DNA from: a virus
Virus record (IMG/VR): IMGVR_UViG_3300032236_001244
Location: 1 to 64,000 of that record
DNA length: 64,000 nt
Direction: 5' to 3' (one strand)
The position numbers and the translations under genes were made by a program. Numbering within the stretch: position 1 is the stretch's first letter; every line of letters starts with the position of its first letter. The notes below the pieces were generated by a model that was not told where the DNA came from, made no database searches, and saw only the letters and a list, made by a program, of their open reading frames with translations. This document shows positions 2,334 to 49,437 of the stretch, piece by piece.

Positions 2334-3086
2334 ATGGCGTCCGGCTTTACCAACGCCGAACTTCTTTATCCGCTCACCAAGGGTGACAAAGAAGGACACG
2401 AGTTTCACGGCAACCAATGGCGCACTGTGGGTGGTGAAGCAAAGACCCCCTCTTCACGCCCACCTGTAGGAACATTCCAATTTTCAGACAACGAAATCAA
2501 GACACTTGCTGAATTGGTGTCTAAGGAATACAACACTTCGGGCGAAAAAATTGACGCCATTGCTGTCAATGTTTCCAAAATGTTGGGAATGGACAAACCG
2601 GCAACTGTTGTCACTTCATCTCCCAATGGGGAAAAGCCAGATTTTTACCGTGGTTGCGACCAAGAGGGCGCTGAAAGTTTGAAGTACGAATTGGAGCATT
2701 ACGGCGGTGCTGGAGTTGGCAAATCAGGCGGAGCGATTTCTGGTGCTGGTGTTTACGCCAGCAGGGACATCAATGTTGCCAATGAATACGCAAACAATAA
2801 AAACGACGGCGTAGTTGTACAAATGTGGGTAGACCCAGAAGCCAAAATTTGCTCTGGCGAAGAAGCCGGTCGTTTGCTTTACGATTTAAACACTAAGTTT
2901 TCTGAAGCCAATGCCCGTGGCGACATTGACAGCCAGCAATTAAAACAATTGCGTATCCTTACCTTGTCTCCAAGTTTTGCTGCTATGTCTTATGGTTATC
3001 AGGCTGTTCATACGCCCGATTTTCAGGGTGGTGAATTGGTTGTTTTAGACCGCTCAATTCTTAAAGTTAAATTGCCGAAATCCTAA
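2334..3086 (+). CDS. Tagged ADP-ribosyltransferase-like protein
   Basis: I chose the ATG at 2334 (250 residues) over the longer frame from 2202 because it begins exactly with the conserved start SGFTNAELLYPLTKGD, followed by GHEFHGNQW. The remaining ~210 residues carry an ADP-ribosyltransferase-like layout: an Arg in DFYRG, a Ser-containing strand followed by GVYASRDINVANEYA, and an acidic residue near the end (GGELVVLDRS). In this family the fold transfers ADP-ribose from NAD+ to a protein. The target cannot be read from sequence; host proteins are inferred. The stop codon lies inside a 22-nt tandem repeat. Confidence 0.65.
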   Translation: MASGFTNAELLYPLTKGDKEGHEFHGNQWRTVGGEAKTPSSRPPVGTFQFSDNEIKTLAELVSKEYNTSGEKIDAIAVNVSKMLGMDKPATVVTSSPNGEKPDFYRGCDQEGAESLKYELEHYGGAGVGKSGGAISGAGVYASRDINVANEYANNKNDGVVVQMWVDPEAKICSGEEAGRLLYDLNTKFSEANARGDIDSQQLKQLRILTLSPSFAAMSYGYQAVHTPDFQGGELVVLDRSILKVKLPKS

Positions 3087-3112
3087 AGTTAAATTGCCAA
3101 AATCCTAAAGTT
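3062..3112 (+). repeat. 22-nt direct tandem repeat across a stop codon
   Basis: Two full copies (3062-3083 and 3084-3105, differing at one base) and the first 7 nt of a third. The TAA stop of the ART-like gene is the first codon of copy 2. Confidence 0.8.
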
Positions 3113-3138
3113 GGCGAAGGCAACGAAACCTCAGCGCC

Positions 3139-3462
3139 CTAGATTTCGCTAGGCAAATTTGGAGCCACACCCCACACAACTGCTTTGCGACCCGAGCGCA
3201 CAATGCGACGCTCTCCGGTGTCCACGACATAGCCTTTCTTGACCAGAGAAACACGGCACGGGCGTTCGCTGTTTCCTTCCATGTTCATGGCGGTACACAG
3301 TTCTTCGTCGGTCAGTGCGCCTTGCTTGAGGACATTGAGCATTTTGATTTGAAGCGCAGGAAACTTGTGAGCCACCGACAAAGCAGCCGCTCGTGAGGTG
3401 TCGCTATGGCGTTGGTGCGCTGGGATTTCGTAGTTGCTATCAAAGAATGTTGTTTGGGTCAT
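3139..3462 (-). CDS. Winged-helix-like small protein
   Basis: The 107-residue protein follows the helicase by 3 nt with the Shine-Dalgarno inside the helicase end (AGAGAGGAA), so the two are co-translated. It shows a helix-turn-helix-like middle (ALTDEELCTAMN) followed by a basic strand-rich C-terminus, as in winged-helix DNA-binding proteins. Its last residues carry a SGRKAVVWG strand. A role in DNA binding near the helicase is inferred only from context. Confidence 0.7.
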   Translation of the reverse strand: MTQTTFFDSNYEIPAHQRHSDTSRAAALSVAHKFPALQIKMLNVLKQGALTDEELCTAMNMEGNSERPCRVSLVKKGYVVDTGERRIVRSGRKAVVWGVAPNLPSEI

Positions 3463-3465
3463 TTC

Positions 3466-6400
3466 CTATTCCTCTCTTAAGGTTTCCATTCCTCGCTCAG
3501 CGAGGCTTACGATTAGGTCGCCAATCATGGAGTTAACTTCCTCTTCGTCATCTAGCGAACCGTCAATGGCACGGTTTACAATAGAACGCTTGTGGTCAAT
3601 CAGCATGGCAATGTCTTCGTCAATGGTGTTTGCCGTGAGCATGAGCCATGCGGTCACGCTGTCCTTTTGACCAATGCGGTGGCAGCGGTCTGCGCCTTGC
3701 TCCATGTCGCTGGGCGTCCAGCCTTGCTCTAGGAAAAGAACATCACTCGCTGCTGTTAGGGTCAGACCCACTCCGGCTGCTTTGATGTTACAGGCGATTA
3801 CCTTTTGGTCGTCGGAGTTTTGGAAAAGGTCTACCGCTTGCTGGCGCTTATCTCCGGTCAAACCACCTTGGATTTTTACGCCGTTGCTGAACTTATCCGC
3901 AACCATGTCTACGACATCACGGTGCCAACCAAACACGACCAACTTCTTGTCTTGCTCTAGGAAATTGTCAATCCATTCCTGAGCCGACTTCATTTTCGCC
4001 TTAGCAGCGAGTTGCTTCAAGGTGGTGATTGAAACCAACTGCTCGGCGCCACGGGCTCGCATGGCTTTGCGCCACGCTTCGTTTTGGGCTTCTTTGTCGG
4101 TCGCACCGCTTTCACGGGCAAGTTCCAAGGCAAGTTGGGCAAGATACTTAATAATGTCCGCCTCAGCCTTTTTGTATTCCTTCATAATTGTGGGGTCACC
4201 CTCAACGAGGACGGTACTCCAAATCTTGGGTGGTAATTCGGTAAGGACTTCCGCTTTGCGTCGGCGCACATAACAACTTGAGCGTAACTTTCGGTTAAGC
4301 GAAGCAAGGCTCTTGGCGTTGGCACGACCATAGGTTCCACGGAATGCTGTTGCCCCACCAAATTCGTCCAAGCGATTAATAACCCGAAGTTGGGTGATTA
4401 TTTCGGTTGGCGTATTAACAATTGCTGTTCCGGAAAGGCATACACGAACTCCGCCCTCAACAACCTTGTCGCTTAACTTTACGCAAGCCTTAGAGCGTTG
4501 TGCTGAACCGTTTTTGATGTAGTGGCTCTCGTCAAGAACAATTCCCTTAAGGGGTGGCAGTTTTTCAACCCAATGGGTCAAGATGTCGTAATTGACAACA
4601 TAAACATCTGCGTCGGGCGTGTTCCCCGTTGTTCCGCTGATTACCTTGACACGAGCGTGTGGTATCCAACGGTTAATTTCACGCTCCCAATTCAACTTCA
4701 GCGAGGCTGGGCAAACAACAACCGCTGGGAAGGCTTGCGCTGCTTGGAGAACGCCGATACCTTGGACGGTGTTGTGAGTGACCAAGTAATGCTCAATTAC
4801 ATACAAATGGTCTGGTGCGTCTACGGAAATACAGGTCACGGGTGCGTCGCCCATGGGTTCAATGCTTTTGATGTTTCGGCTGGGGGTGTATTTGGTCGGC
4901 TTTTTCCATGCCTCTACTTTGCGAGGCAGTAGAAAGGGGCAGTCCATAAGTTTGATGTTTACACGGTAAGCCAATTCTCCGTATGGTTCACCGTTTTTTG
5001 TTGGTTGCTTAGTGTTTCGTCGCACCACCCCACCAAGGCTAAGAACCAACTCCGCAACTCCGTCCGCCAAGTCTTTGCTAATACTGACATACTCATTAGT
5101 TCCTTCAGCCCCAGCGTGACCGTCGGTGTCCATAAGACCCCGAAGCAAGGCTAAGCGGTCTTGCGCTGATGAGCGTAAGTACTTTTCGGGAATAAACTTA
5201 CTGCCGGACTTTTGGCGCAATCCCATAGCGTCAAGTGTGCGTCGTAAGACATTTGGTGAACCAGCGTGTTGGGAGATAATTGCGTAATCATAATTGCCCA
5301 AATGCTTCACAGAAAGTGTTGAAGGAATACGCTTGGAAACTTCTTGAACAATAAAACTGTCTGCTGAGGAAATGTGGACTTTCGCTCCACCAATTGCTCC
5401 GTCGCCCAAAAGTAGCCCGAGAAGGTACGGGTCAATTGGCAAAGGTTCGTTTTGCCCCTCAAATTCAACGGGCTGAACTAATGGAATTCGCCACTTCAAG
5501 TTTCCGGCACCGTCAATCAATTGATTGGCAAGGTCTTTAGTTTCCTTGACGAGCCACTTATCTGGGTTTCGGTGACCATTTTGGACAGACTGAACAGCCC
5601 AAAGATGTTCGCCGTCTACAATCGTTTCCGAACCGTCATTGAACGAAACACGGTAAGTGGGAATTACGCCACGAGGGAAAACACCCGTTATGGTTGTAGC
5701 CCTACCGTTGGAACCGATAACCGTATCGCCAACGGCAAGGTTTTCAATGTTTGTCCAACCCTTGGGAGTTAGAACTTTGGTTCCGTGAACATTGCCCTTG
5801 CCCAGTCCCATTTCGTCGCCAATCAACACGCCACCCGTGGTTGGTTCGGTTTGCGTCCAATTGCCCTCGTGGTGTTCGTATCCCATTGAGCGCATGGCGT
5901 AGGCAATACCGGCTCGCTGGAAGGGAAACGGCTGAAAGGTGTCGTTGCCCAAACCATTGACCCAAATTTGAGCGTCTTTTGCTTGCGAAGCGTCAATTAC
6001 CGCTTGAACGCCCTCGGCTTCGTGAAGCAACTCTTTGGCTTCTTCGGACAAACGAGCCTTGTGCTGTTCTGCGAACTTCAGAACCTCATCTGAACTCTCA
6101 ATTGGAACAAGCCACGCACGAATTGGTGGTGACCAAACCGAACCAGGCATTTGTCGGACTTGGCTAATCATCTCGCTGTCGTAGTTAAATGACAGTGCGA
6201 AATTGCGCCCGTGTACCGCAATGGTCGGAGTGGTGATTACCTCAACATCAGGCAAACGCTGGACATCAAGGCTCATAAAAATTTGGTGTTCTTCGGCAAT
6301 ACGGCGCAACAAAGTTACGCTCGTTTTTGGAATGACCCAAGTTTTGTCGGTAGCGTTCCAACGGCGCCCCTGAATGGTGCGAACAGCGTCAAGAATTATT

Positions 6401-6954
6401 GGGTTGTAATCAAACTTGATTACAATCTCGCCCTTCTCCAACACTGCTGAACCAGCCCACTCTTTTTTATCGGGCGTTGGTGCTGATGAAAGGATTGCCT
6501 TGGCACGGTCGGTAACGGGAATTTTGTTTCGTTCAGCCCATTGGAGAACGGAACCATACTTGGCGACGGAAACTTGCCAGCCCTTAACGGGGCTGTTCCA
6601 AAAAGCGCCAAGCGCAACTTTGGGGTAAGCGCTGTCTCCCCATGGAAGGAAAACGAGGACGGCGCCATTCCGAACATCTACGCAACGGACGCCACGAAGT
6701 TTGTTTGACGCTTTGGGCTCGGTGATTGCGCTGTAGTCAATGCCAACGGAAGCAAGTTGGGTTTTGTACTTGGCAAGCATTTCCCATACTTCACGCTGAA
6801 CTTCGGGTTGCCACGCTTCTGCTGGCACTTTCGCAATAGCATTGCCAAACTTTGTATCAGACCCGTTAAAACCAACGCCGTCCTGTGTCACCGCACCGTC
6901 ATCTACGCTGGCAAGCGCAAGGACTGCTTGAACGAGTAACGGGTCAGTTGGCAT
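3466..6954 (-). CDS. HARP-SNF2 type helicase precursor with class 3 intein
   Basis: The 1162-residue precursor has three N-terminal HARP-like repeats (about residues 85-155, 170-225, 245-300; pattern W..P...W.VP) and then a SNF2-type ATPase core with GDEMGLGK|T Walker A, DESH box (VLDESHYIKNG) and helicase C motifs (HRIGQKD). HARP plus SNF2 is the architecture of SMARCAL1, which rewinds single-stranded DNA; a fork-remodelling or recombination role is inferred. The Walker A Lys386 and Thr729 are split by a 342-residue intein, so the ATPase is inactive until splicing yields an 820-residue protein. The start at 6954 lies 8 nt after a TATTAT -10 box. Confidence 0.9.
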   Translation of the reverse strand: MPTDPLLVQAVLALASVDDGAVTQDGVGFNGSDTKFGNAIAKVPAEAWQPEVQREVWEMLAKYKTQLASVGIDYSAITEPKASNKLRGVRCVDVRNGAVLVFLPWGDSAYPKVALGAFWNSPVKGWQVSVAKYGSVLQWAERNKIPVTDRAKAILSSAPTPDKKEWAGSAVLEKGEIVIKFDYNPIILDAVRTIQGRRWNATDKTWVIPKTSVTLLRRIAEEHQIFMSLDVQRLPDVEVITTPTIAVHGRNFALSFNYDSEMISQVRQMPGSVWSPPIRAWLVPIESSDEVLKFAEQHKARLSEEAKELLHEAEGVQAVIDASQAKDAQIWVNGLGNDTFQPFPFQRAGIAYAMRSMGYEHHEGNWTQTEPTTGGVLIGDEMGLGKGNVHGTKVLTPKGWTNIENLAVGDTVIGSNGRATTITGVFPRGVIPTYRVSFNDGSETIVDGEHLWAVQSVQNGHRNPDKWLVKETKDLANQLIDGAGNLKWRIPLVQPVEFEGQNEPLPIDPYLLGLLLGDGAIGGAKVHISSADSFIVQEVSKRIPSTLSVKHLGNYDYAIISQHAGSPNVLRRTLDAMGLRQKSGSKFIPEKYLRSSAQDRLALLRGLMDTDGHAGAEGTNEYVSISKDLADGVAELVLSLGGVVRRNTKQPTKNGEPYGELAYRVNIKLMDCPFLLPRKVEAWKKPTKYTPSRNIKSIEPMGDAPVTCISVDAPDHLYVIEHYLVTHNTVQGIGVLQAAQAFPAVVVCPASLKLNWEREINRWIPHARVKVISGTTGNTPDADVYVVNYDILTHWVEKLPPLKGIVLDESHYIKNGSAQRSKACVKLSDKVVEGGVRVCLSGTAIVNTPTEIITQLRVINRLDEFGGATAFRGTYGRANAKSLASLNRKLRSSCYVRRRKAEVLTELPPKIWSTVLVEGDPTIMKEYKKAEADIIKYLAQLALELARESGATDKEAQNEAWRKAMRARGAEQLVSITTLKQLAAKAKMKSAQEWIDNFLEQDKKLVVFGWHRDVVDMVADKFSNGVKIQGGLTGDKRQQAVDLFQNSDDQKVIACNIKAAGVGLTLTAASDVLFLEQGWTPSDMEQGADRCHRIGQKDSVTAWLMLTANTIDEDIAMLIDHKRSIVNRAIDGSLDDEEEVNSMIGDLIVSLAERGMETLREE
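4771..5796 (-). mobile_element. Class 3 intein with LAGLIDADG homing endonuclease
   Basis: Residues 387-728 of the helicase interrupt the P-loop between Lys and Thr. Block A begins with Gly (GNVHGTKVLTPKG) rather than Cys or Ser. The class 3 W-C-T signature is present: Trp452 in GEHLWAV (block B), Cys708 in VTCISVD (block F:4), Thr729 at +1; the intein ends YLVTHN. Two dodecapeptide motifs (LLGLLLGDGAIGG, LLRGLMDTDGHAG) mark an apparently intact DOD endonuclease. Class 3 inteins use the block F Cys to start splicing because residue 1 is not a nucleophile. Confidence 0.9.
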
Positions 6955-6962
6955 ACCGTCTT

Positions 6963-6991
6963 ATAATAGCACGGTTTAGTGGTGAAGTGAA
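6963..6991 (-). promoter_or_regulatory. Promoter of helicase gene, leaderless layout
   Basis: TTCACT, 17 nt, TATTAT, then 8 nt to the ATG at 6954. The stretch ACTAAACCGTGCTA in the spacer and -10 recurs in the plus-strand promoter before the Gam gene (14131-14145). Confidence 0.55.
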
Positions 6992-6994
6992 GAA

Positions 6995-7258
6995 CTACTT
7001 ATCTCGGTTGTGGTGCTTGTAAAGGGCTTGGTCGGTCGTGCCAGCCCATTCAGCAATCTTGCGCCAAGTCACGCCGTGGTCACGAAGGCGAGTAACGGTC
7101 TGACGACGCTCACGACCCAACTCCACGACCTCTTGCTCGTGCTTACGCATTTGAGCGCAAATGTCCTTGATGTGGGTCAGCAACGAGGCAACCTCGGGGG
7201 AAAAATCGGCTTCCAATTCCTTGCGACTTGGCAGTGGGGTAATGGGTTCTTTAGACAT
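6995..7258 (-). CDS. Small helix-turn-helix protein
   Basis: I chose the ATG at 7258 (87 residues) because AAGGAGA lies upstream; the longer frame to 7390 has no ribosome site. The N-terminal half is a predicted coiled helix; the C-terminal half (RLRDHGVTWRKIAEWAGTT) is a helix-turn-helix of the sigma-70 region 4/Sigma-like or resolvase type. Probably a small DNA-binding regulator. It lies before the helicase in the same direction, separated by the helicase promoter. Confidence 0.75.
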   Translation of the reverse strand: MSKEPITPLPSRKELEADFSPEVASLLTHIKDICAQMRKHEQEVVELGRERRQTVTRLRDHGVTWRKIAEWAGTTDQALYKHHNRDK

Positions 7259-7276
7259 TGTGGTGTTCTCCTTGTA

Positions 7277-7312
7277 AGTCACAGTGTAGTGGGGTTTCCA
7301 AAGTCCGGTGTT
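7277..7312 (-). promoter_or_regulatory. -10 box with GGACTTTGGAAA element
   Basis: Minus strand shows GGACTTTGGAAA and then TACACT about 25 nt before the ribosome site of the HTH gene. The first element is the reverse complement of the motif found before 1458. No convincing -35 box is seen. Confidence 0.3.
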
Positions 7313-7456
7313 GTGTAACGGGGTTGGTCGCAGTATCACCAATAAATTTACGGAAATAAAACTTTTGTCGTATTGGCTTCTGTACGCCAAATTTTACACC
7401 CAATACTAAGTATTGGAAACCAATCTTTACCGTGCTACGAGGAAGGTGGGTGCTGT

Positions 7457-7630
7457 TTAGTTTTTGTTGAAGTCCGGGTTGGAAGGGTGGCGGAGCCGTG
7501 CCTTCCGTTCTTCGTTGATGTGCTGTTCATGGAACCATTCGCCGGAAACAAAAAAACCACGGACACGACAAATAAGGCAATGACCGTAATCGTCGGGGCT
7601 AGACGAGTTTTCAAATTCGTGTTTTTCCAT
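7457..7630 (-). CDS. Small hypothetical protein with CxxC
   Basis: This 57-residue frame starts 7 nt after a consensus promoter and contains HCLICRVRG, a possible metal site, in an acidic-to-basic protein. It fills what would otherwise be a 440-nt gap. A different overlapping frame (7435-7647) was rejected. Function unknown. Confidence 0.6.
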   Translation of the reverse strand: MEKHEFENSSSPDDYGHCLICRVRGFFVSGEWFHEQHINEERKARLRHPSNPDFNKN

Positions 7631-7637
7631 AAACGAC

Positions 7638-7665
7638 AGTCTATCAACTATTGTTTAGTTGTCAA
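7638..7665 (-). promoter_or_regulatory. Consensus sigma-70-type promoter, leaderless
   Basis: TTGACA, 16 nt, TAGACT, then 7 nt to ATG at 7630. There is no room for a Shine-Dalgarno, so the mRNA would start at or next to the start codon. Confidence 0.7.
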
Positions 7666-7697
7666 GGGTTTTCCAATGTACTCGTGAAGGTACTTGA

Positions 7698-8072
7698 TTA
7701 GCAATCTTGTATTGGTGTGATTGTCAATTCCAATGCGTCCTTGCCGTACAAAGGGGCTAGGAAGGTCAGTTTGAGGACGATACCAGCATGGTCGTCTATC
7801 AGCACCCCAGCGTCTACCAAGCCGTCAATTCCGGCTTTGGCTAGTGGGAAACACGCACCAACATCTTGCCTGTATCTGGCGTTCAGCACATAAGGTTGGA
7901 CAACAACTTCTATTTGCTCCATGTGTGGAACCATGGCTTCTTGAGCAAGGTCGCAAAACGCTTGTCGCCACTCTTTGGTCTTTTTTGCCCTGACCATGTG
8001 GTGAACCGTTCGCTCTTTGTTGAGCGTAAAGTCGGGGCGTTCCTCGTAAGTCAATGTGTACGAGTTTTCCAT
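7698..8072 (-). CDS. rusA: RusA-type Holliday junction resolvase
   Basis: The 124-residue protein has the RusA family length and pattern: an aspartate in RYRQDVGACFPLAKAGIDGLVDAGVLIDDHAGIV, with the D..N/D.....K...D.L...G...DD spacing that forms the metal site of this dimeric junction-cutting nuclease. It would resolve branched DNA made during recombination-dependent replication before packaging. It starts a few nt after the preceding stop, so it belongs to one operon with the proteasome-like gene. A RusA role is well supported; junction specificity is taken from the family. Confidence 0.8.
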   Translation of the reverse strand: MENSYTLTYEERPDFTLNKERTVHHMVRAKKTKEWRQAFCDLAQEAMVPHMEQIEVVVQPYVLNARYRQDVGACFPLAKAGIDGLVDAGVLIDDHAGIVLKLTFLAPLYGKDALELTITPIQDC

Positions 8073-8077
8073 GGTAA

Positions 8078-8566
8078 TTACAAACTAATTACTTTAAACG
8101 GCGCACGGACTTGGGTTGTGTGATACGCAGTCGCTTTTAATGCGGTGGTGAGCCGGTCTTTGCCACTCATGTTTACCCCTTGTAGGGCAAACAAAGCAGA
8201 CATTGCTGATAGACCGCCTGCTCCAACCGCACCATAAGTTTCACGGCAACGAACTACGGAAAAATCATTTCCAATAATCCAAACGCCAGATGTGCTGATG
8301 ACAAGTATCTGCGTGTCATTTTCTGCTTGCGACGAAGAGTTTTCGTTCCACCATGCTTCCAAGTGGTCACGCAGTTTGTGGGGGTCGCCAATTGCGCTTT
8401 CGTACGCAACTTCAGCGAGGCGAAAACCGCCCGAGGCTCCGAGCAGGTAATCGTCGGTTTTCCAAACCTTGATTTCGGTCAAAACAACGCTGTCCTCATC
8501 AAAGGCTCCGCTGTCGCCACCTATCCACGCTTCTTTAGCGTTGTGCCAACCAGCAATTACCGTCAT
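8078..8566 (-). CDS. HslV/proteasome beta-like Ntn hydrolase
   Basis: The 162-residue protein begins MTVIAGWHN. If Met is removed, Thr1 is followed by Asp17 in GGDSGA and Lys32 in EIKVWK, the catalytic set of proteasome beta/HslV peptidases, then GASGG and GAVGAGGLSAMSALFAL, which match the conserved glycine-rich strands and helix of HslV. The family forms ring-shaped threonine proteases. No ATPase partner (HslU/ARC) is seen here, so it may use a host partner or act on its own. Start is 6 nt after TAATCT. Confidence 0.7.
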   Translation of the reverse strand: MTVIAGWHNAKEAWIGGDSGAFDEDSVVLTEIKVWKTDDYLLGASGGFRLAEVAYESAIGDPHKLRDHLEAWWNENSSSQAENDTQILVISTSGVWIIGNDFSVVRCRETYGAVGAGGLSAMSALFALQGVNMSGKDRLTTALKATAYHTTQVRAPFKVISL

Positions 8567-8572
8567 ACAAAA

Positions 8573-9813: not shown

Positions 9814-9966
9814 CTACTCGGCGTCGTCGCTTCCGCCAATGAACTTCAGCGTCGCTTGCCACATGGCTTTATTGTGCTGTAGTTCTTCCGGCGTCATCTT
9901 CGCTTCAACCTCACGGCGAATTGCGTCATAATCAATGTTGTCAATGTCTATGTTGCGTTCTGTCAT
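9814..9966 (-). CDS. Small acidic protein coupled to GNAT-like gene
   Basis: A 50-residue frame beginning MTERNIDIDNIDYD overlaps the upstream stop by ATGA, the usual coupling in this genome, which supports it as real. It has a helical, acidic composition (AKMTPEELQHNKAMW). Function unknown. Confidence 0.65.
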   Translation of the reverse strand: MTERNIDIDNIDYDAIRREVEAKMTPEELQHNKAMWQATLKFIGGSDDAE

Positions 9967-10484
9967 TTTGCCAATCTCATTGTGTAGTAACTAGGTGTTC
10001 CAAATTCTTTGTAGTTCCAATTATCCGGTGCGTAGTCTGGGTTCCAAGGTGAAACACTCTCAACTTGAAATCCCAACTTGCCATACAGGGCAGGTAGGAA
10101 GTTACCGAAGCATTCTACATAGTTCACGCCGTACTTGTCAATAGCGTGGTTTAGTATTTTTAGACCTGCGCCCTTTACCTTGCTGTCGCTGAACAAGGCG
10201 GTTGCTTCAACCCGACCGTCCCCGTGGTCGTGAACGAGAACTCCGGTTTTCCCGTCTTTAGAAATTACTGCGGTCATTTTTCCGGACTTCATGTCATTCA
10301 TGGTGTAGTGATTTACAAAAGCGGAGTACTTGCTTCCCTTAAACGCTTTTTCAAACTGTTTTTTAAAATCACCATACGAAGCCACGCCAAACGAAATGTA
10401 TTGGTTTCCCCTGAATGGGTGACCCTTAAAATCGCCTTTTGTAATTGGGTACAAAAGTTCGGTGGTGGTGAAGCCGGAAGTCAT
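9963..10484 (-). CDS. Tagged GNAT-like acetyltransferase
   Basis: The 173-residue protein begins SGFTTTELLYPITKGD followed by GHPFRGNQY, the shared start and tag. The body has the layout of GNAT N-acetyltransferases: a GVLVHDHGDGRVEATALF strand pair, KGAGLKILNHAIDKYG (acetyl-CoA loop and helix) and FLPALYGKLGFQVES, the typical final Y..LGF motif. Substrate is unknown; by analogy with the tagged modules of the giant proteins a host protein is inferred. The gene has its own -10 box 6 nt before ATG. Confidence 0.7.
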   Translation of the reverse strand: MTSGFTTTELLYPITKGDFKGHPFRGNQYISFGVASYGDFKKQFEKAFKGSKYSAFVNHYTMNDMKSGKMTAVISKDGKTGVLVHDHGDGRVEATALFSDSKVKGAGLKILNHAIDKYGVNYVECFGNFLPALYGKLGFQVESVSPWNPDYAPDNWNYKEFGTPSYYTMRLAK

Positions 10485-42136: not shown

Positions 42137-43365
42137 GAGAAAATCGCCAAATCTCCCCACGGGCGTTCCCCGTAGGCGCTTCCAATTCCAACTACCAACA
42201 TTCCGGCAGCGGCGTGTTTTCCTGCTCGTTGCTGAAACCACTCGGAGCCACCGTCCATTGCTGGGCATTGGAACACATAGCGTTCTTGCTCCGACGCAAC
42301 AAAGTGGTGATAGTGACCCGTAAACAAAATCTTGGCGTCACCCAAAGGGTTGTTTCCCGTCCATTGGTTCTTCCACCAAGTGTGAATACGCTGGGTGCTT
42401 TCCGAACCGTTACGACCAAATTGGTGACCGTGCGCCCAGCCGACATCAACGCCAGAGATGTTGAGCGTTAGCGTCATGTCTTGGCGCTCGTCCTCGCTGA
42501 GGTGGTGAAAAATAACCGCCCCGTTGCCATAGCGGTCGGGGTTTTGGGCGCAAGCAAAAGCAACATAACGGAACACCTGAACATCTGCGTTATCGTCAAA
42601 ATTTGTCACCGACTTGCCGTCCATGCGGACTTCTCCGTGATTACCAGGTACGGCTGCGACATGAACGGGAATGTCCAATTTGTCCACGCACAAGTTCACG
42701 AAGCGCATGATGAGGCGCACCGCAATCTCCATTTGCTCGTGGAAGTTTCGGTCGGTGGTGAATAATTGTTGGGCGTAGTAGCCAGCAAAGTTTTCAATAA
42801 TGTCGCCAACGCCTACGAGGTAGATAGCCTCGGGGCGTCGTCCGCACTTAACGAGAAACTTGACATACTCAATAAATTGGTCTTGCGCTCGTTCAATACG
42901 AGCCACGGTAGCGTCGGTACCGCCCCCTTCCCCCTTCCCGATTTGCCAATCAGCAAGGTTTGCGATAAGGGAAAAGCCCGTCTTTTCTTTTGAAACGGGT
43001 AGGCGTGAGGGCTTTAACTTTGCGTATCGCTTAGCAACCTCTTCGGGGTCAAGGACATCATTCCATAAGGTGAATACATTGGCTTTCCACGACTTTGAAG
43101 TAGTGGATACCCCGTCCTTCGTTACGGTCTTGACTTCCAAAGTAACGGAAGTGGGGTCAATGTGGTGAAGGGCTGGGTTGCCGTTCAATTCCTTTAGAAG
43201 TTCGTTCCACTCCGCACGGGTGGGTGGGGTGTCTCGCTCACCGCTGGTGATTGAGCCTCGGGCGGAGCCGGAGCCCTTGCGAGCCTTTCCAATTACGAGC
43301 GTTGGCTCCAAACCAGAAGGTTTCTTGGGGGCGTTGGCTCTATCAGCACTTTCACGCAAACTCAT
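42133..43365 (-). CDS. Calcineurin-like metallophosphoesterase
   Basis: I chose the ATG at 43365 (410 residues) because it overlaps the previous stop (ATGA). Metal-binding motifs appear in order: LADWQIGKGEGG, YLVGVGDIIENF, AVPGNHGEVR, and late histidines GWAHGHQFG and FTGHYHHF. These fit a two-metal phosphoesterase of the SbcD/Mre11 superfamily. A nuclease or nucleotide phosphatase role is likely. An N-terminal basic Ser/Arg/Gly-rich stretch precedes the core. Confidence 0.8.
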   Translation of the reverse strand: MSLRESADRANAPKKPSGLEPTLVIGKARKGSGSARGSITSGERDTPPTRAEWNELLKELNGNPALHHIDPTSVTLEVKTVTKDGVSTTSKSWKANVFTLWNDVLDPEEVAKRYAKLKPSRLPVSKEKTGFSLIANLADWQIGKGEGGGTDATVARIERAQDQFIEYVKFLVKCGRRPEAIYLVGVGDIIENFAGYYAQQLFTTDRNFHEQMEIAVRLIMRFVNLCVDKLDIPVHVAAVPGNHGEVRMDGKSVTNFDDNADVQVFRYVAFACAQNPDRYGNGAVIFHHLSEDERQDMTLTLNISGVDVGWAHGHQFGRNGSESTQRIHTWWKNQWTGNNPLGDAKILFTGHYHHFVASEQERYVFQCPAMDGGSEWFQQRAGKHAAAGMLVVGIGSAYGERPWGDLAIFS

Positions 43366-43613
43366 GCGTATGCGCCCTTCCACTTTTCATTGTTGGAGCA
43401 GTTACAAAGCCCGTCTAGGTGACGCTTAACGGTTTTTTCGCCACAGGCGATACCTTCCGACATCAGTACACGGGAAATCCAATTGGACGCCTTACGAGCC
43501 TCAATCCATTCACCAAGCACAGCAAGGTCGTCCTTGTCTAGTGCGGAAATGACGGTAAGAAACTTACAAGCCGACCCTTGTTCTAGGCGTTCTTGCGCCT
43601 GTCGTAGTGACAT
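43362..43613 (-). CDS. Small helix-turn-helix-like protein
   Basis: The 83-residue protein (LDKDDLAVLGEWIEARKASNWISRVLMSEGIACGEKTVKRHLDGLCNC) looks like a small DNA-binding protein; similar short proteins in actinophages end in a Cys-x-Cys. A small terminase or regulator role is possible but not shown. Start context TTTCACC ATG. Confidence 0.6.
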   Translation of the reverse strand: MSLRQAQERLEQGSACKFLTVISALDKDDLAVLGEWIEARKASNWISRVLMSEGIACGEKTVKRHLDGLCNCSNNEKWKGAYA

Positions 43614-43648
43614 GGTGAAACAATAGCACTACATTCCGTAATCGGCAA

Positions 43649-43981
43649 CTACTTTTCTTCGGACTTTGTAACCGTCTTCGGAGCCGTCTTTTTTGCCGGA
43701 GCCTTTTTTGCTGGCGCTTTCTTGGCTGGAGCCTTCTTCGCAACAACCTTCTTTACGGGCTTTTCCAATTCTGGCTTTGCTGGCTCAACGGGTGCTGAAA
43801 CGGGTGCGTTAAGACTTGCCATTTCCTCGGGGGTGAGGGCAACAATAAATTCACCACTTTCTAGGGCGACAATGTTGCCGGTGTGAATTTTGGTACCGTC
43901 CAAAAGGGTTCCGACCTCAACAAAAGTGTCATTGGGGGCTGGAATGGCACGGATTACACGGTGGGTGAATGTGTCTGTCAT
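43649..43981 (-). CDS. Protein with histone H1-like Lys/Ala/Pro tail
   Basis: I chose ATG at 43981 (110 residues). Residues 1-60 form a small beta domain (VEVGTLLDGTKIHTGNIVAL). Residues 65-110 are a tail of AKKAPAKK repeats like histone H1 and actinobacterial nucleoid proteins. The tail may bind DNA or anionic polymers. It lies between capsid and small regulatory genes. Leaderless-type promoter, 7 nt from TACGCT. Confidence 0.7.
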   Translation of the reverse strand: MTDTFTHRVIRAIPAPNDTFVEVGTLLDGTKIHTGNIVALESGEFIVALTPEEMASLNAPVSAPVEPAKPELEKPVKKVVAKKAPAKKAPAKKAPAKKTAPKTVTKSEEK

Positions 43982-43988
43982 ACGGTTT

Positions 43989-43994
43989 AGCGTA
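43989..43994 (-). promoter_or_regulatory. -10 box, leaderless layout
   Basis: TACGCT, 7 nt before ATG, preceded by CCGTGC as in two other promoters here. Confidence 0.4.
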
Positions 43995-44007
43995 GCACGG
44001 ACAAAGC

Positions 44008-44038
44008 AAAACCCCCCCACCCGAAGGTGAGGGGGTTT
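44008..44038. terminator. Terminator after major capsid gene
   Basis: Hairpin with AAACCCCC/GGGGGTTT arms plus CACC/GGTG inner pairs, 24 nt after the capsid stop in the minus direction. Confidence 0.75.
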
Positions 44039-44061
44039 CGCAAGACTGCGGTACTTCTGGA

Positions 44062-45042
44062 TTAGATAATGCTTGACCAGAAGTAGCCAAGGTCGGCAGC
44101 GACAACCTTGTTGTCAAAGGCGATTTCGCCTTCAACACGGTCAGCCTTCAACTCTTCCATGCGGAAGCGAGAAACACCGACGGTCGTGCCAAGACCACCC
44201 GAAACGCCCGTCCACATGAAGGTGTAGCCAGCCGAGGGGGTCATAAGACCAGGGTTGGGAGCCGTGTAGCACAGCAGGGCGTTGATACCCGTGGTGTACG
44301 AGTACGAGCCCGTGGCGCCTTCAACAGCCGAGTTGTAGACCGACTTGGCAACGAGAACACGGTCTACGCCGAACAGCGCAGCAAGCAAGTCCTCGGTCAC
44401 AATCGCACCGGCTTGGGTGTACTTGTAACGGTCTACGAGCGTGGGGTGAGCCTTCAACTTCTGGAAGACAGCGTACGAGAGAACCAAGGTGTTGGGCTCG
44501 TAGCCGGTCGTCTGAAGAATACGGGTCTTGGCGTTCTCAACATCAACAATCGGCGTTGAGTTCACATAGTCCGACCACTTAATCGTCTGCGTGGTCGCAG
44601 GCGAGGTTGAGGTCGTACCCGTGATGTCGGTACCCCAAACGCCCGTGGTGAAGTAGTCCGAAGCCCACTGAATTTCACGACGGAGAAGGAGACGCTGAGT
44701 AACAAACTGCGTCGCTTCCATGTCGGGGTTGAGGGGGTTGTCGGCGTTCGCACGGGTCTGGTCACCAATGTCCTTGTGGAAGGCGAACACATCAGTCATG
44801 TAACTGTCGGTCGTCAAGCCGTAGCCGGAGCCAGCCGAAGCCGTACCGTCAGCACGACGCTGAGCCTCGTCACGGAACCAATCGTCCTTCGTGTACTTGA
44901 AGTACAGGTTGGACTTCTTGTCCACGGGAATGGTGGGGAACACCTTGTCAGCAATGAAGTTGTTGGTGTTCTGAAGGTAAGCAACCGAGATGTTGGTCAA
45001 GATTGCGTCAATGTGAACATTGTTCACTGAGGGCTGTGGCAT
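44062..45042 (-). CDS. Major capsid protein
   Basis: The 326-residue protein has features of HK97-fold capsid proteins of this type: FIADKVFPTIPVDKKSNLYF, KDDWFRDEAQRRADG, FAFHKDIGDQTRANAD...ATQFVTQRLLLRREIQWA, a middle LVLSYAVFQKLKAHPTLVDRYKY, and a C-terminal FRMEELKADRVEGEIAFDNKV. AAAGGA precedes the ATG. It follows scaffold-like and decoration genes and is followed by a terminator, as expected for high expression. Confidence 0.85.
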   Translation of the reverse strand: MPQPSVNNVHIDAILTNISVAYLQNTNNFIADKVFPTIPVDKKSNLYFKYTKDDWFRDEAQRRADGTASAGSGYGLTTDSYMTDVFAFHKDIGDQTRANADNPLNPDMEATQFVTQRLLLRREIQWASDYFTTGVWGTDITGTTSTSPATTQTIKWSDYVNSTPIVDVENAKTRILQTTGYEPNTLVLSYAVFQKLKAHPTLVDRYKYTQAGAIVTEDLLAALFGVDRVLVAKSVYNSAVEGATGSYSYTTGINALLCYTAPNPGLMTPSAGYTFMWTGVSGGLGTTVGVSRFRMEELKADRVEGEIAFDNKVVAADLGYFWSSII

Positions 45043-45061
45043 GATTTATCCTTTCTATGCC

Positions 45062-45475
45062 TTAAGCGCCACGACCGGCGTTTGCGAACGAAACGGCAGC
45101 GGTGATGATTTCGCCAGCGTTGTTACAAGCCGTCAGAGCGGTGCCAATGATGTACTTCGTGGTGTCGGTACCAAAAGCAGCGGTAACGACCTGACCGGAA
45201 CCGTCCGTCATCAGAGGGGCGCCGACAGCAACGCCAGCACCGGCACGAACCTTACAAACACCCGAAACCGTAACTTCGGCTTCAAAGTTTGCCTTGGGCG
45301 TGTTCTGAAGGACACCGATACAACGGTCAGTAGCAGCCGCCGAAAGCGTAGCGCCAGGCGTGCCAGCGACAGGCGACGACAACTTGACCAACTTGAATTG
45401 GTTAGAAAGGTCGGAGTAGTCGGCAGCAGCGACGAGCGAAATCTTTACAGCGTATGGGTTCTGTTCAAAAGCCAT
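45062..45475 (-). CDS. Capsid decoration/cement protein (DUF2190-like)
   Basis: The 137-residue beta-rich protein has VRAGAGVAVGAPLMTDGSG and KYIIGTALTACNNAGEIITA, as in DUF2190 cement proteins that bind capsid three-fold sites. Lies directly before the capsid gene in the operon. Confidence 0.75.
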   Translation of the reverse strand: MAFEQNPYAVKISLVAAADYSDLSNQFKLVKLSSPVAGTPGATLSAAATDRCIGVLQNTPKANFEAEVTVSGVCKVRAGAGVAVGAPLMTDGSGQVVTAAFGTDTTKYIIGTALTACNNAGEIITAAVSFANAGRGA

Positions 45476-45477
45476 GA

Positions 45478-46263
45478 TTAACGACCCTTCTCGTTGAGGT
45501 AAGTGGTGTAGAGGTCAGGGTTCGCCTGAGCGACGCTCATAAGAGCAGCCTCAAACGAAGGAGCCGTACCTTCAGCAACAGCAGCCTTAGCGAGGTTGCT
45601 CATCTTGCTGTAGGCGTCGTCGGTCGCTACGGGAGCGTCCGAACCAACCTCGGAGAAAACGACATTGGTTTCCACGAGAGCGTTGGCGCTGTCCAGAGCC
45701 TTGACGATTTCGCCAGCGAGAACGCTGTCGGCTTCGGCAACACGGCGAAGGGCAGGGCCCACAATCGTGGGGTCAATGTTGAGGTGCGTCCAGCCAGCAG
45801 CCTTGACAACCGCAGCCTCATCAGCACGAGCGTCACGCTCGGCAATGAGGGCAGCCTCGGAAGCAGCAGCCTTACGAAGGGCAGCGTCGGCGTTAGCCGA
45901 AGCCTCGGACAACATCTTGCGGATTTGCTCAGGCATAGCCTTGATGATGTCAGCCTCGCTCGCACTCTCGGGAATGATAACTACCTCGGGGGCAGTCTCT
46001 TCTGAGAATTCAGGCATAATTTCCTCCTGGAAATTAGTGAGGGTTTCCAAACCAGCGGTTGCTGATTTGGTTGTGTCCATAGCCTCGGTTACTACTGTCT
46101 CAGCGACAGGGGCTTCTCCGGCTTCCGGACGAAGTTCGTCAAGAACCGCAGAGGCTTCAGCAGGGGTAGCCGACTTCATTACAACCCAACCGTCGTGAAG
46201 GTGAGCAGGACGGTCTACACCGCTTGTCTCCTTGATGTTGAGGCGTACTAACTTTCGTGCCAC
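45478..46263 (-). CDS. Scaffold-like protein with XkdF-like N-terminus
   Basis: The 261-residue protein starts at GTG. Its N-terminus (LVRLNIKETSGVDRPAHLHDGWVVMKS) resembles the start of XkdF-like/prohead proteins. The rest is acidic and helical with a coiled coil (EASANADAALRKAAASEAALI) and ends ANPDLYTTYLNEKG, as in capsid scaffolds. No clear protease triad is visible, so it is probably a scaffold rather than an active prohead protease. Confidence 0.7.
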   Translation of the reverse strand: MARKLVRLNIKETSGVDRPAHLHDGWVVMKSATPAEASAVLDELRPEAGEAPVAETVVTEAMDTTKSATAGLETLTNFQEEIMPEFSEETAPEVVIIPESASEADIIKAMPEQIRKMLSEASANADAALRKAAASEAALIAERDARADEAAVVKAAGWTHLNIDPTIVGPALRRVAEADSVLAGEIVKALDSANALVETNVVFSEVGSDAPVATDDAYSKMSNLAKAAVAEGTAPSFEAALMSVAQANPDLYTTYLNEKGR

Positions 46264-46324
46264 GCTTGCTTCTTTCTCTACGACTTGACCTATGAAAAAT
46301 TACAAAGGTCTTGACATAGAGAAG

Positions 46325-46351
46325 AGTAGAGGCACTTTTGGAATTGTCAAG
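46325..46351 (-). promoter_or_regulatory. Possible promoter for head operon
   Basis: TTGACA (46346-46351) with TACTCT 16 nt further; the -10 is weak. It lies 62 nt before the scaffold-like gene. Confidence 0.3.
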
Positions 46352-46369
46352 TGTTGAACTTGAGAATTG

Positions 46370-47185
46370 CTAAAAGGGGTAATCGTCCTCGTTGGTGAAG
46401 AGTGGGCAAATGTCCTTGAAGGAACACCAATTTTCGCAAAGATTGTTGCGAATAGGCGGAAAATAGCCATTTTCGTACCAATTTTCAATCTTCGCCCATG
46501 CCTTACGGACACGCTCTTCGGCGTATCGGACATCTTCATCAGTGACATCAATCACCAAAGTTTTTCCGAACTGAACATAGAGAAGGCGAATTTGGGTCGG
46601 GCGCTCGCCCAAAACCTTCTCGCAAAGGTAGGCGTAAATCTTGGCTGGAAGGATTGCTGAAGCCTTGTATTTATCTTGGGGAACCTTGCCCGTCTTGTAG
46701 TCCACAATGATGAGGTTGCCGTTTTCGTCACGGTCTAATCGGTCAAGAATGCCACGCAAGGTGAAGCCACCCATGTCAAAGTCGTACTTGATTTCAATCC
46801 CCTCGCTCTTAACTTCTTGGGGGTTCTCCATAGTGAAGTAAGTGCGAATGTATTTGGAAAGGTCACGGGCAAAAGTTTGGACGCCCATGCTGTCCAATTC
46901 CATTTCTTGGGCAATCTCTTCGCTGACCAAGGTGGGCATTAGTTCACGCATTATCTCAAGGGCGAGTTCTGGTGTGCGCTCGTGTGGTGTTTCCATGGTG
47001 CGTAGAAACATGGTTTCCAAGATTTCGTGGAATACGGTGCCACGGTAGGTAGCCATTTTCTTGCGCTCGGGCAAGCGTTCAATGGTGGTGTATTGGTATT
47101 GGCGTGGGCAAGTCTCAATCTGACCAACACGACTAGGTGATACTCCGTACGGCTTCTCGCCTAGGTATACAGGGGTTGAGTTCAT
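46370..47185 (-). CDS. PD-(D/E)XK nuclease with Cys cluster (RecB/Cas4-like)
   Basis: I chose ATG at 47185 (271 residues). The core has GTVFHEILE, LRGILDRLDRDENGNLIIVDYKTGK (Asp...Asp-x-Lys catalytic set) and a C-terminal CENWCSFKDICP which with Cys near the N-terminus (ETCPRQYQY) matches the 4Fe-4S cluster of Cas4/AddB-type exonucleases. A 5' or 3' exonuclease role in recombination is likely. Confidence 0.8.
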   Translation of the reverse strand: MNSTPVYLGEKPYGVSPSRVGQIETCPRQYQYTTIERLPERKKMATYRGTVFHEILETMFLRTMETPHERTPELALEIMRELMPTLVSEEIAQEMELDSMGVQTFARDLSKYIRTYFTMENPQEVKSEGIEIKYDFDMGGFTLRGILDRLDRDENGNLIIVDYKTGKVPQDKYKASAILPAKIYAYLCEKVLGERPTQIRLLYVQFGKTLVIDVTDEDVRYAEERVRKAWAKIENWYENGYFPPIRNNLCENWCSFKDICPLFTNEDDYPF

Positions 47186-47224
47186 TCGCAAACCTTATCA
47201 GGTGCGTGTGACTAAAGCAAGTGT

Positions 47225-47494
47225 TTAAAACAAAGTTTTAAAGGTGTTGTACTTCCGTGACTTACGCAACGCCTTGTTAATCTTTTCGGCAAGGCGCATG
47301 GCGCTGTCAATGTCACGGCAGTACACGCTGAAGTCATCAATTGGAACAATTATTCCGCCCTCGTTGGAGCGACGGATAATGCGAAGTTCACCATAGTTTT
47401 TGTTTGACCACGCAATGTAGCGGTATGGCAAATCGTTGGCTTCTACCTGACCAAAATCGTCGGGTGCTGACCACTGAAGGCGACGGTGAAACAT
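47225..47494 (-). CDS. Hypothetical protein
   Basis: The 89-residue protein is strand-rich with a helical basic C-terminus (AEKINKALRKSRKYN). It overlaps the upstream stop by one base (TAATG). No family recognised. Confidence 0.65.
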   Translation of the reverse strand: MFHRRLQWSAPDDFGQVEANDLPYRYIAWSNKNYGELRIIRRSNEGGIIVPIDDFSVYCRDIDSAMRLAEKINKALRKSRKYNTFKTLF

Positions 47495-47730
47495 TAAGCG
47501 TTTTCCTCAGCGTATTGCGAGAGGTGGCTGAATGGCTCCAACTCGTCAATCTTCTTGCCTGCGATTTCCAAAGCCTTGGTCAAACGCTCGTTGTCGCTTG
47601 CCAACTGCTCAATTGTCTCCTGCTGACGCAAGGCAATGTCAATCAATCTGGTGATGTCGTTCGTGTCGTAGGCGTCGTGAACTAACGCCTTGTGAACACG
47701 CTCGGTCAATTCGTTTAGGGATACTGTCAT
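47494..47730 (-). CDS. Small coiled-coil protein
   Basis: The 78-residue protein is helical with a heptad stretch (RQQETIEQLASDNERLTKALE). CAGGAG lies upstream of its ATG. Probably a dimer; function unknown. Confidence 0.7.
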   Translation of the reverse strand: MTVSLNELTERVHKALVHDAYDTNDITRLIDIALRQQETIEQLASDNERLTKALEIAGKKIDELEPFSHLSQYAEENA

Positions 47731-47788
47731 TATTTCAACTCCTGTGTAGGGGGGTTGCCTAACTGTAGGTTATCACGCTTTATCAGGT

Positions 47789-48181
47789 TCAACGCACTTC
47801 TCCGGTGTATTTGAGAAGTTCCGTAAATGGGCAATCCTTTTCTGGGCTGTACTCAACCTCGGTTTTTCGCCCACAATCAGCACACTCAATCTTGAGGGGG
47901 TTGGAGACTTTGCGAACTCGCCAATCATGCTCGCAATAACGAGCGTCACCATTGTTGATGACACGAACGGTTTTCTTGTGGGGGTCACGGATAACCCGAC
48001 CTTGGCGTTCCAAGTTGATAAGAAGGCGCTGAACGGTTGAGGTGGACTTGATGTCCATTGCTTTTCCAATGACCCGATACGACGGTGGGAAGCCGTAGGA
48101 CTGCCAAAATTTGCTGATGAAACGAACCGTCTCGTCGGCTTTAGTTTCAATGAATGAAGTGCCTTGGGCTTTTCCTGTCAT
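47789..48181 (-). CDS. LexA-like DNA-binding domain with zinc ribbon, no peptidase
   Basis: I chose ATG at 48181 (130 residues), 7 nt after a -10 box. Residues ~15-75 resemble the LexA winged helix (FPPSYRVIGKAMDIKSTSTVQRLLINLERQGRVI). Instead of the S24 peptidase there is a short zinc-ribbon-like region (EHDWRV...ECADCGRKTE). It should bind an operator but cannot self-cleave. The palindrome over its own promoter (48202-48216) is a likely target. Confidence 0.7.
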   Translation of the reverse strand: MTGKAQGTSFIETKADETVRFISKFWQSYGFPPSYRVIGKAMDIKSTSTVQRLLINLERQGRVIRDPHKKTVRVINNGDARYCEHDWRVRKVSNPLKIECADCGRKTEVEYSPEKDCPFTELLKYTGEVR

Positions 48182-48183
48182 GG

Positions 48184-48221
48184 TGATGACCATAGCAGAA
48201 AGCGAACAGTGTTCGCAAGTT
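48184..48221. repeat. Direct repeat copy 1 (operator-promoter repeat)
   Basis: Shares an exact 18-nt core (GAACAGTGTTCGCAAGTT) and the TGATGACC end with copy 2 at 48859-48893. It directly follows the stop of the tagged gene at 48224. Confidence 0.75.
48189..48218 (-). promoter_or_regulatory. Promoter and 15-bp operator of LexA-like gene
   Basis: TTGCGA, 18 nt, TATGGT, 7 nt to ATG. The palindrome GCGAACAGTGTTCGC (48202-48216) overlaps the -35. It is close to, but one base shorter in the spacer than, the CGAACN4GTTCG SOS box of Gram-positive bacteria. Confidence 0.65.
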
Positions 48222-48223
48222 TT

Positions 48224-48790
48224 TTACCAATTGGATTGGCGAATTGGTTTGTACTGACCACTAATGGCTAGTTTGAAGGAAGGGTAGTCTCTCGTACCAT
48301 ACGAGAGCGTAATGGGGGAGACTTCGCACAAGTAGCCCTTAGAAGCAAGCGTATCCGCTACTGCCACAAGTTGAACTCTTGTTTTTTCTGCGTCCTGCGG
48401 TTGTTGTGGCTCAAAGCCCAATCTAAATCTGAAGTGATTGTCCGTCACAACAAGGTGATTGTCGTCGGACTTCATCATCTTCCAATTTGTCGTCATTGTG
48501 CGCCCCGTGGCATGGTTGCGAGCGGTTTGTACACTTCCGTACCAACCAACTTGGCTACCAAATTTTGAGGCTCCGTTGCTGATAAGGATTTCTTCAATTT
48601 TCTTACCCAGCAATTTTCCGGAAGACATTGCGTTTGATTTGTCGTACTTTGTAAGACGGTACTTTTTTCTGTTTAAAAACTTCTCCGGTAACGCAGGAAT
48701 GTGCGTCCATTGGTTTCCGTGAAAGTCATGTCCTAGGACATCACCCTTGGATAAGGGGTACAGGAGTTCATTGGTGGTGAAGCCGGACAT
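48224..48790 (-). CDS. Tagged protein of unknown function (188 residues)
   Basis: I chose ATG at 48790, which gives the shared start SGFTTNELLYPLSKGD and tag GHDFHGNQW. The rest is a mixed alpha/beta domain (GWYGSVQTARNHATGRTMTTNWK; NHFRFRLGFEPQQ) that I do not recognise. It is bounded by two copies of a direct repeat and has its own leaderless-type promoter, so it looks like an independent cassette. Confidence 0.75.
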   Translation of the reverse strand: MSGFTTNELLYPLSKGDVLGHDFHGNQWTHIPALPEKFLNRKKYRLTKYDKSNAMSSGKLLGKKIEEILISNGASKFGSQVGWYGSVQTARNHATGRTMTTNWKMMKSDDNHLVVTDNHFRFRLGFEPQQPQDAEKTRVQLVAVADTLASKGYLCEVSPITLSYGTRDYPSFKLAISGQYKPIRQSNW

Positions 48791-48796
48791 AAAACA

Positions 48797-48825
48797 AGGA
48801 TACCGTACGGCAAACAAAAAAGCAA
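48797..48825 (-). promoter_or_regulatory. Leaderless-type promoter of tagged gene
   Basis: TTGCTT, 17 nt, TATCCT, then 6 nt to ATG. Confidence 0.5.
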
Positions 48826-48858
48826 TTATGCGCCTCAGCGAAGGGTCGCTACTAGAAG

Positions 48859-48893
48859 TGATGACCGTGGCATGAGAACAGTGTTCGCAAGTT
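48859..48893. repeat. Direct repeat copy 2
   Basis: Partner of 48184-48221. The palindrome here has one mismatch and the -10 box is not kept, so the copy looks decayed. It directly follows the stop of the tagged gene at 48892. Confidence 0.75.
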
Positions 48894-49437
48894 ACTTCTT
48901 AGCGAAGTAGGCGTATTCCTTGGCTGCTCGGTCTGCTTTATCTTGGTTGTAATCAATCAACGATTGGCGTTCTGGTGTTCCCCATGTAGCCGGTTCAACC
49001 GTTGGGTCTTTAGCACGGTCTAGGTTTTGTTGGGTCTTGTACAAGCAACTTGTACCGTGTGGTGTTGGTATTTTTGTGTTTGCCACATAAGTTTTTCCAG
49101 CCTTGCTGGTGTACAGTTCAACCTTTTCATCACACATAGCGCAACGGTCACCGTGTTCCGTTGGAACAATAACCCCATGCTTGTATAAATCGTCTTGACA
49201 GTAGGTGTTCCACTTCCCGTCACGAGACTTGAAAACACCGCCCTTGAATGCTTCCACTTTGTCACCACAAATAGCACACTTGCCTGCGTAGGAGTTGAGC
49301 CTTACATAGCGGTTTGGCTTGTCTACGGGCTGACCATTAAAGCCAATAACCTGCCACTGATTTCCGTGAAAATCGTGACCGACCACATCTCCCTTGGTCA
49401 AAGGGTAGAGCAAGGCTTCCGTGGTGAACTCTGTCAT
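48892..49437 (-). CDS. Tagged protein with Cys-rich finger repeats
   Basis: The 181-residue protein begins TEFTTEALLYPLTKGD with GHDFHGNQW. Two related Cys motifs follow (GKCAICGDKVEAF ... YCQDDLYKHGV; DRCAMCDEKVELY), suggesting zinc fingers, then a charged helical C-terminus. It might bind nucleic acid or act as a scaffold; function unknown. Leaderless-type promoter upstream. Confidence 0.75.
   Translation of the reverse strand: MTEFTTEALLYPLTKGDVVGHDFHGNQWQVIGFNGQPVDKPNRYVRLNSYAGKCAICGDKVEAFKGGVFKSRDGKWNTYCQDDLYKHGVIVPTEHGDRCAMCDEKVELYTSKAGKTYVANTKIPTPHGTSCLYKTQQNLDRAKDPTVEPATWGTPERQSLIDYNQDKADRAAKEYAYFAKK

What the first reader, a model, noticed from the sequence alone, without database searches (positions are those of the whole stretch)
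2334..49437. Same tag at the N-terminus of scattered single-domain genes, with a second signature before it
Seen: genes at 2334-3086, 9963-10484, 48224-48790 and 48892-49437 begin with F(T/N)xxxLLYP(L/I)(T/S)KGD then GHxFxGNQ; the gene at the left edge has the tag and an internal SFTTKALLRG. Two neighbours (1458, 2006) have only the FxxxxLL part. Their bodies are unrelated (ART-like, GNAT-like, zinc fingers, unknown). A shared N-terminal address on unrelated cargo is the expected form of a targeting signal.
Basis: partly seen in the sequence, partly recalled or inferred. Interest (0 to 1): 0.85.

Follow-up and report, generated by a model that had tools for sequence, protein, structure and literature searches.

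The report
Repeated cargo tag in freshwater phages
A freshwater phage and many uncultured phages like it mark dozens of unrelated enzymes with the same short peptide, apparently to load them into the virus head, which would give a simple sequence label for finding proteins that phages inject into bacteria.

Summary
KGDxxGHxF(H/R)GNQ occurs 22 times in this phage contig: at the N-terminus of five genes, and as repeated junctions splitting four long ORFs (one of 2411 aa) into single-domain modules. Chance expectation is zero. Synonymous sites are saturated, so the peptide is under selection. AlphaFold leaves it disordered outside the folded domain in both proteins modelled. In IMG/VR, 308 copies lie in 221 ORFs; 85,000 prokaryote genomes give almost none. 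What lies before the tag is a short N-terminal address (five recurrent classes, e.g. F..xLLYPLT), a head protein (portal, MuF, prohead protease) or another cargo. What follows is cargo: ADP-ribosyltransferases, Zeta toxins, kinases, an alarmone-synthetase homologue. Fourteen cargo families occur both solo and inside polyproteins. In MCP-anchored relatives tags lie only on the head side of the capsid gene. Best reading: address (F..LL) plus junction (KGD..GNQ) of virion-packaged, injected effectors, the junction probably a processing site. Packaging is well supported by context but not shown; cleavage is inferred. It works like T4 and P1 capsid-targeting sequences and belongs with polyvalent and MuF effectors; I found no description of a shared consensus tag in the papers searched.

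The parts
3..1262 (+). Left-edge ORF (5' open): address SFHYSDLVPSFASVLL (class B) at about 3-53, tag 54-92, ParB/phrog_2859-like cargo, then an internal F..LL address (SFTTKALLRG, about 804-833) and a second cargo
1458..2003 (+). Address-only protein (NRFEANELLKG), no GNQ tag; homologues in other tag phages keep an F..xLLK start
2006..2329 (+). Address-only protein (DFTNKALLKS), no GNQ tag
2334..3086 (+). Solo cargo: address MASGFTNAELLYPLT (2334-2378), tag (2379-2417), ART-like body (weak call)
9963..10484 (-). Solo cargo: address MTSGFTTTELLYPIT (10440-10484), tag KGDFKGHPFRGNQ (10401-10439); body is embedded in a MuF polyprotein in L110
48224..48790 (-). Solo cargo: address MSGFTTNELLYPLS, tag (48710-48748), unknown body
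48892..49437 (-). Solo cargo: address MTEFTTEALLYPLT, tag (49357-49395), Cys-rich body
52885..60120 (-). PP2411 polyprotein: HipA/PI3K-like kinase, then 8 tag-delimited modules (DRAT-like ART, HEIGH metallopeptidase and others)
60123..63965 (-). PP1280 polyprotein: N-terminal address MDFRNILRLVT (class D), 5 tags; phrog_2579 and phrog_3170 modules and HipA_2-like kinase
51212..52297 (-). MuF minor head protein directly downstream of the polyproteins (head operon context)
45478..46263 (-). Scaffold-like protein (phrog_13547), resembles Ottawa gp98
44062..45042 (-). Major capsid protein, 50-55% identical to Arthrobacter phages Ottawa, Kharcho and Salgado
63971..64000 (-). Window edge. The same operon continues beyond the window in L009: PP613 (64405-66246, 3 tags, ADP-ribosyltransferase) and PP443 (66250-67581, tag plus small alarmone synthetase-like cargo)

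Best explanation
A two-part loading system for head-packaged, co-injected effectors. Part 1 is a short N-terminal address (F..xLLYPLT, LxPxW..EIL, EIxxWVxxA, [FW]RxILxIL and others) that docks the protein on the assembling prohead. Part 2, KGDxxGHxF(H/R)GNQ plus a Gly-rich spacer, is the junction between any carrier (address, portal, MuF, protease or preceding module) and each cargo domain. I think the junction is most likely recognised during head assembly, probably cut by the head maturation protease (XkdF or S78 type), so that solo genes and polyproteins both yield separate cargo inside the head for ejection with the DNA. Shown: architecture, conservation at protein level, disorder of the tag in two AlphaFold models, phage specificity, head-operon position, association with head proteins, cargo interchange between solo and embedded forms. 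Inferred: packaging, injection, docking partner, cleavage.
For: The tag is invariant at nine positions in 22 copies, while third-base identity (0.479) equals that expected from codon usage (0.494), so selection acts on the peptide. N-terminal addresses are far more alike within a phage than between phages when homologous cargo is excluded (28.0 vs 15.3; 0 of 1000 shuffles). The H/R position of the tag is also phage-specific (z=13). Tags follow Phage_Mu_F (4 of 39 N-terminal parts scanned), Phage_portal (2), S78 and XkdF proteases. In 37 MCP-anchored loci all 56 tags lie upstream of the MCP on its strand and none in the tail genes. The probable continuation contig G001 (123 b identical end overlap) has portal, XkdF protease, then tagged genes. 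302 modules form 156 families; 14 of 44 multi-member families occur both solo and embedded. PP443 cargo has a small alarmone synthetase fold (8vx3, E=1.4e-13); its homologues are fused to MuF in Streptococcus and Pasteurella phages, where (p)ppApp synthetase activity was shown for that MuF-fused type (PMC12226406). The tag has pLDDT below 50 next to folded bodies.
Against: No virion proteomics is available. No cleavage site is shown, and residues before the tag vary, so any cut must lie inside the motif. Several address classes coexist in one phage. The closest isolates (Arthrobacter phages) lack the tag, so it is not essential for this head type. 14 full-length XkdF relatives include 3 without a tag in the locus (some are fragments).
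Confidence: 0.6

Rival explanations
1. The tag is a passive flexible connector: it only keeps independently folding domains apart in polyvalent proteins and solo genes, with no recognition.
For: Disordered, Gly-rich downstream, found between domains.
Against: A passive linker would not keep nine positions invariant against saturated synonymous sites, would not be needed at N-termini of single-domain genes, and would not show a phage-specific H/R position.
Confidence: 0.2
2. The tag acts after injection, for example in passage through the tail, in refolding, or in processing by a host protease.
For: Would also explain one tag per cargo unit.
Against: Tags sit behind portal, MuF and protease domains and lie in the head operon, which points to assembly rather than to the recipient cell; this does not exclude it.
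Confidence: 0.12
3. The tag DNA is a recombination hot spot that promotes module shuffling.
For: Modules are shuffled at tag borders.
Against: DNA of the copies is randomised at third positions, so there is little homology to recombine on; conservation is at protein level.
Confidence: 0.04
4. The segment is part of the fold of each downstream domain.
For: Always directly upstream of the domain.
Against: 156 unrelated cargo families share it; pLDDT below 50 in both models; homologous cargo exists without it.
Confidence: 0.02

Closest known systems
Capsid targeting sequences of phage T4 internal proteins (IPIII) and phage P1 DarB
   Same: Short N-terminal signals that send unrelated proteins into the head for injection; 30 residues suffice in P1 (PMC9024508).
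   Different: P1 Dar proteins show no shared consensus by BLAST (PMC9024508). Here a strict consensus marks about 20 units per contig, recurs inside polyproteins and behind head proteins, and is shared across many uncultured phages.
Polyvalent proteins of phages and conjugative elements (Iyer et al. 2017, PMC5512222)
   Same: Large multidomain proteins with ART, ParB and metallopeptidase domains near head genes, predicted to be injected.
   Different: A search of that paper for 'linker' found nothing and no GHxFxGNQ-type motif turned up among the passages shown. Here modules are separated by a conserved peptide and also occur as solo tagged genes.
MuF polymorphic toxins (PMC5576092; Apk2, PMC12226406)
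   Same: Toxin domains delivered through fusion to a minor head protein; homologous alarmone-synthetase-like cargo.
   Different: Here the cargo sits behind the tag, mostly not fused to MuF; MuF is only one of several carriers.

Membership tests
Capsid targeting sequence (T4/P1 type) | N-terminal peptide shared by unrelated proteins of one phage | tested here: met
   (sharing shown; packaging itself not testable)
Capsid targeting sequence (T4/P1 type) | Sufficient to direct a reporter into the capsid | not testable with these tools
   needs an assembly or infection system
Capsid targeting sequence (T4/P1 type) | Removed by the prohead protease (T4) | not testable with these tools
   an XkdF protease gene lies next to tagged genes in the probable continuation contig; cleavage not shown
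Polyvalent proteins | Multiple effector domains in one polypeptide of a phage | tested here: met
Polyvalent proteins | Encoded with head/packaging genes, predicted injected | tested here: met
   for context; injection not tested
MuF polymorphic toxins | Toxin domain fused C-terminal to a MuF domain | tested here: not met
   window cargo is not fused to its MuF (51212-52297); some relatives do fuse MuF-tag-cargo

The most novel reading that the evidence does not exclude
KGDxxGHxFxGNQ is a general carrier-cargo junction of tailed phages, recognised by head maturation proteases of more than one family (XkdF and S78 types), so that polyproteins are cut into single injected effectors inside the prohead; reading genomes for it would reveal hundreds of new injected effector families at once.
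Probability: 0.35. Interest if true: 0.88.

Novelty: new variant of a known kind. Interest (0 to 1): 0.74.

Why it matters
If right, a 13-residue pattern identifies virion-delivered effectors directly from sequence. In about 100 contigs it already marks 156 cargo families, most without any Pfam match. It also turns an open question, how phages select which proteins enter the head, into a short peptide that can be mutated and fused to reporters, with possible use in protein delivery by phage.

Tried and rejected
1) The F..LL address inside the XkdF protease (FTTADLL) looked like protease self-targeting; in orthologues F becomes Y and the segment belongs to a conserved block, so I rejected it. 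2) The tag as an ordinary DNA repeat or recombination site: rejected by codon saturation. 3) Tags in cellular genomes: strict pattern 0 hits, relaxed pattern 4 hits not examined further. 4) Tag in cultured phages: short tblastn queries are insensitive. The only clear case is Xanthomonas phage Rb1, a 1221-aa 'internal head protein' with GDFSGHPFRGNQH mid-protein beside DarA-N and metallopeptidase genes; plasmids gave nothing convincing. 5) A GGPGSG...GHAGRPG linker recalled from memory gave no match. 6) Fold search of 2334-3086: best hit 6kyf (an anti-CRISPR protein), E=0.27, not significant. 7) PADLOC: no hits.

Full report
Observation. The five tagged genes and the two address-only genes are as described. 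A six-frame scan of the whole contig (67,582 b, of which the window is 1-64,000) finds 22 copies of KGDxxGHxF(H/R)GNQ. Seventeen lie in four long minus-strand ORFs between 52.9 and 67.6 kb: PP2411 (8), PP1280 (5), PP613 (3) and PP443 (1). In the window the DNA pattern matches 18 times against 0 in 100 shuffles. At the nine invariant positions third-base identity among copies is 0.479 against 0.494 expected from codon usage: the copies are old and the peptide, not the DNA, is conserved.

Spread. The same pattern gave 0 hits in genome contigs (about 85,000 prokaryote species), and a relaxed one gave 4. Consensus: K-G-D-x-x-G-H-x-F-[HR]-G-N-Q-[YWHF]-T, with a KGGPGSGxxxGHPFxGNQ variant.

What precedes the tag. 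(i) Short N-terminal addresses: 112 from 58 contigs, 80 of them in five recurrent classes: F..xLL (followed by YP or by K..S.YPV), LxPxW..EIL, EIxxWVxxA, [FW]RxILxIL and INRFG. Within a phage they are alike even on unrelated cargo (mean score 28.0 vs 15.3 between phages; shuffles 15.5 +/- 1.15; 0 of 1000), whereas sequence before internal tags shows almost no such effect (12.7 vs 11.8). (ii) Head proteins: Phage_Mu_F, Phage_portal, Peptidase_S78 and XkdF; for example portal-tag-Zeta toxin in L035 and MuF-tag-metallopeptidase-like in L118. (iii) Another cargo module. The address can occur without the tag: most homologues of 1458 and the one of 2006 keep F..xLLK starts.

What follows. 302 modules fall into 156 families, 112 of them singletons. 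Of 44 families with at least two members, 14 occur both as solo genes and inside polyproteins, with the alignment starting at the tag. Recognised domains include ADPrib_exo_Tox, ART-PolyVal, DRAT, Zeta toxin, PI3/PI4-kinase and HipA-like kinases, GNAT, RelA_SpoT and pentapeptide repeats. Conserved HExxH occurs in all six homologues checked of the last PP2411 module. PP443 is the clearest cargo: residues 157-360 model at pLDDT about 90 and match the Streptomyces exported small alarmone synthetase 8vx3 (Foldseek E=1.4e-13, TM 0.81 on the target; sequence E=4e-14). Its homologues are fused directly to MuF, without a tag, in Streptococcus and Pasteurella phages. Members of that MuF-fused type from S. 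pneumoniae, M. haemolytica and P. multocida phages are toxic (p)ppApp synthetases (Apk2, PMC12226406).

Structure of the tag. In AlphaFold models the tag has pLDDT below 50 both in the solo gene 2334-3086 (residues 11-39, body about 80) and between the two parts of PP443 (121-156). The PP443 N-terminal part is itself only moderately confident (about 35-65), so only its cargo side is a clearly folded neighbour.

Genome context. Contig G001 (46,311 b) begins with 123 b identical to the end of this contig and carries the genes missing here: terminase, Mu-type portal and an XkdF protease, followed by tagged genes. The order along the transcript would be portal, XkdF protease, tagged genes, PP443, PP613, PP1280, PP2411, MuF, two tagged genes, scaffold, MCP. 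That the two contigs are one virus is likely, not proven. In 37 loci found by MCP similarity (76-87% identity), independent of the tag, 20 have tags; all 56 lie upstream of the MCP on its strand, none in the tail region; eight more distant relatives (63-67%) have none. Among XkdF-anchored loci 11 of 14 full-length relatives have tags, against 0 of 27 loci with only part of the protease in common. This follows lineage and does not by itself show that the protease acts on the tag. The nearest isolates, Arthrobacter phages Ottawa and Salgado, have the portal, MuF, scaffold and MCP but no tag in the stretches read.

Mechanism. The simplest reading of 'carrier - KGD..GNQ - cargo' is a two-part signal. 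The F..LL-type segment is the address; the GNQ motif is a junction recognised during head assembly and probably cut by the head maturation protease, as T4 capsid-targeting sequences are removed (own knowledge). Packaging is supported by four lines (head-operon position, fusion to head proteins, cargo shared with MuF toxins, phage specificity). Cleavage rests on the equivalence of solo and embedded modules and on motif conservation, and remains an inference; variation before the tag means that a cut would have to lie inside it.

Known and new. T4 and P1 capsid-targeting sequences, polyvalent proteins and MuF toxins are the nearest systems. The searches made found no description of a shared consensus tag or of tag-delimited modules, but the paper library is incomplete. 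I class this as a new variant of a known kind.

Noticed in passing
window 3466-6954 (-): SNF2-type helicase with an intein-like insert (Hint and LAGLIDADG matches) at the nucleotide-binding motif.
   Followed up: partly
L100/L138 1-123 and window contig 67460-67582: Contig IMGVR_UViG_3300032236_001318 begins with 123 bases identical to the end of this contig and holds the terminase, portal and XkdF protease missing here; probably the same phage, genome over 110 kb.
   Followed up: partly
L138 2599-3033 (-): Ferritin/Dps-like gene inside the tagged gene cluster.
   Followed up: no
L295 6802-10467 (+): Cultured Xanthomonas phage Rb1 has GDFSGHPFRGNQH in the middle of a 1221-aa polyvalent 'internal head protein', next to DarA-N and metallopeptidase genes.
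   Followed up: partly
window 50594-51040 (-): Transglycosylase-like domain (PF06737, Rpf-like), which with the Arthrobacter-like capsid suggests an actinobacterial host.
   Followed up: no
L111 3943-5022 (+): A different linker, EARDVHGRWTAGG, precedes a GNAT domain just before a KGD..GNQ tag, suggesting other tag families of the same kind.
   Followed up: no
L138 3980-5752 (-): XkdF protease with long poly-serine/aspartate stretches before the protease domain.
   Followed up: no
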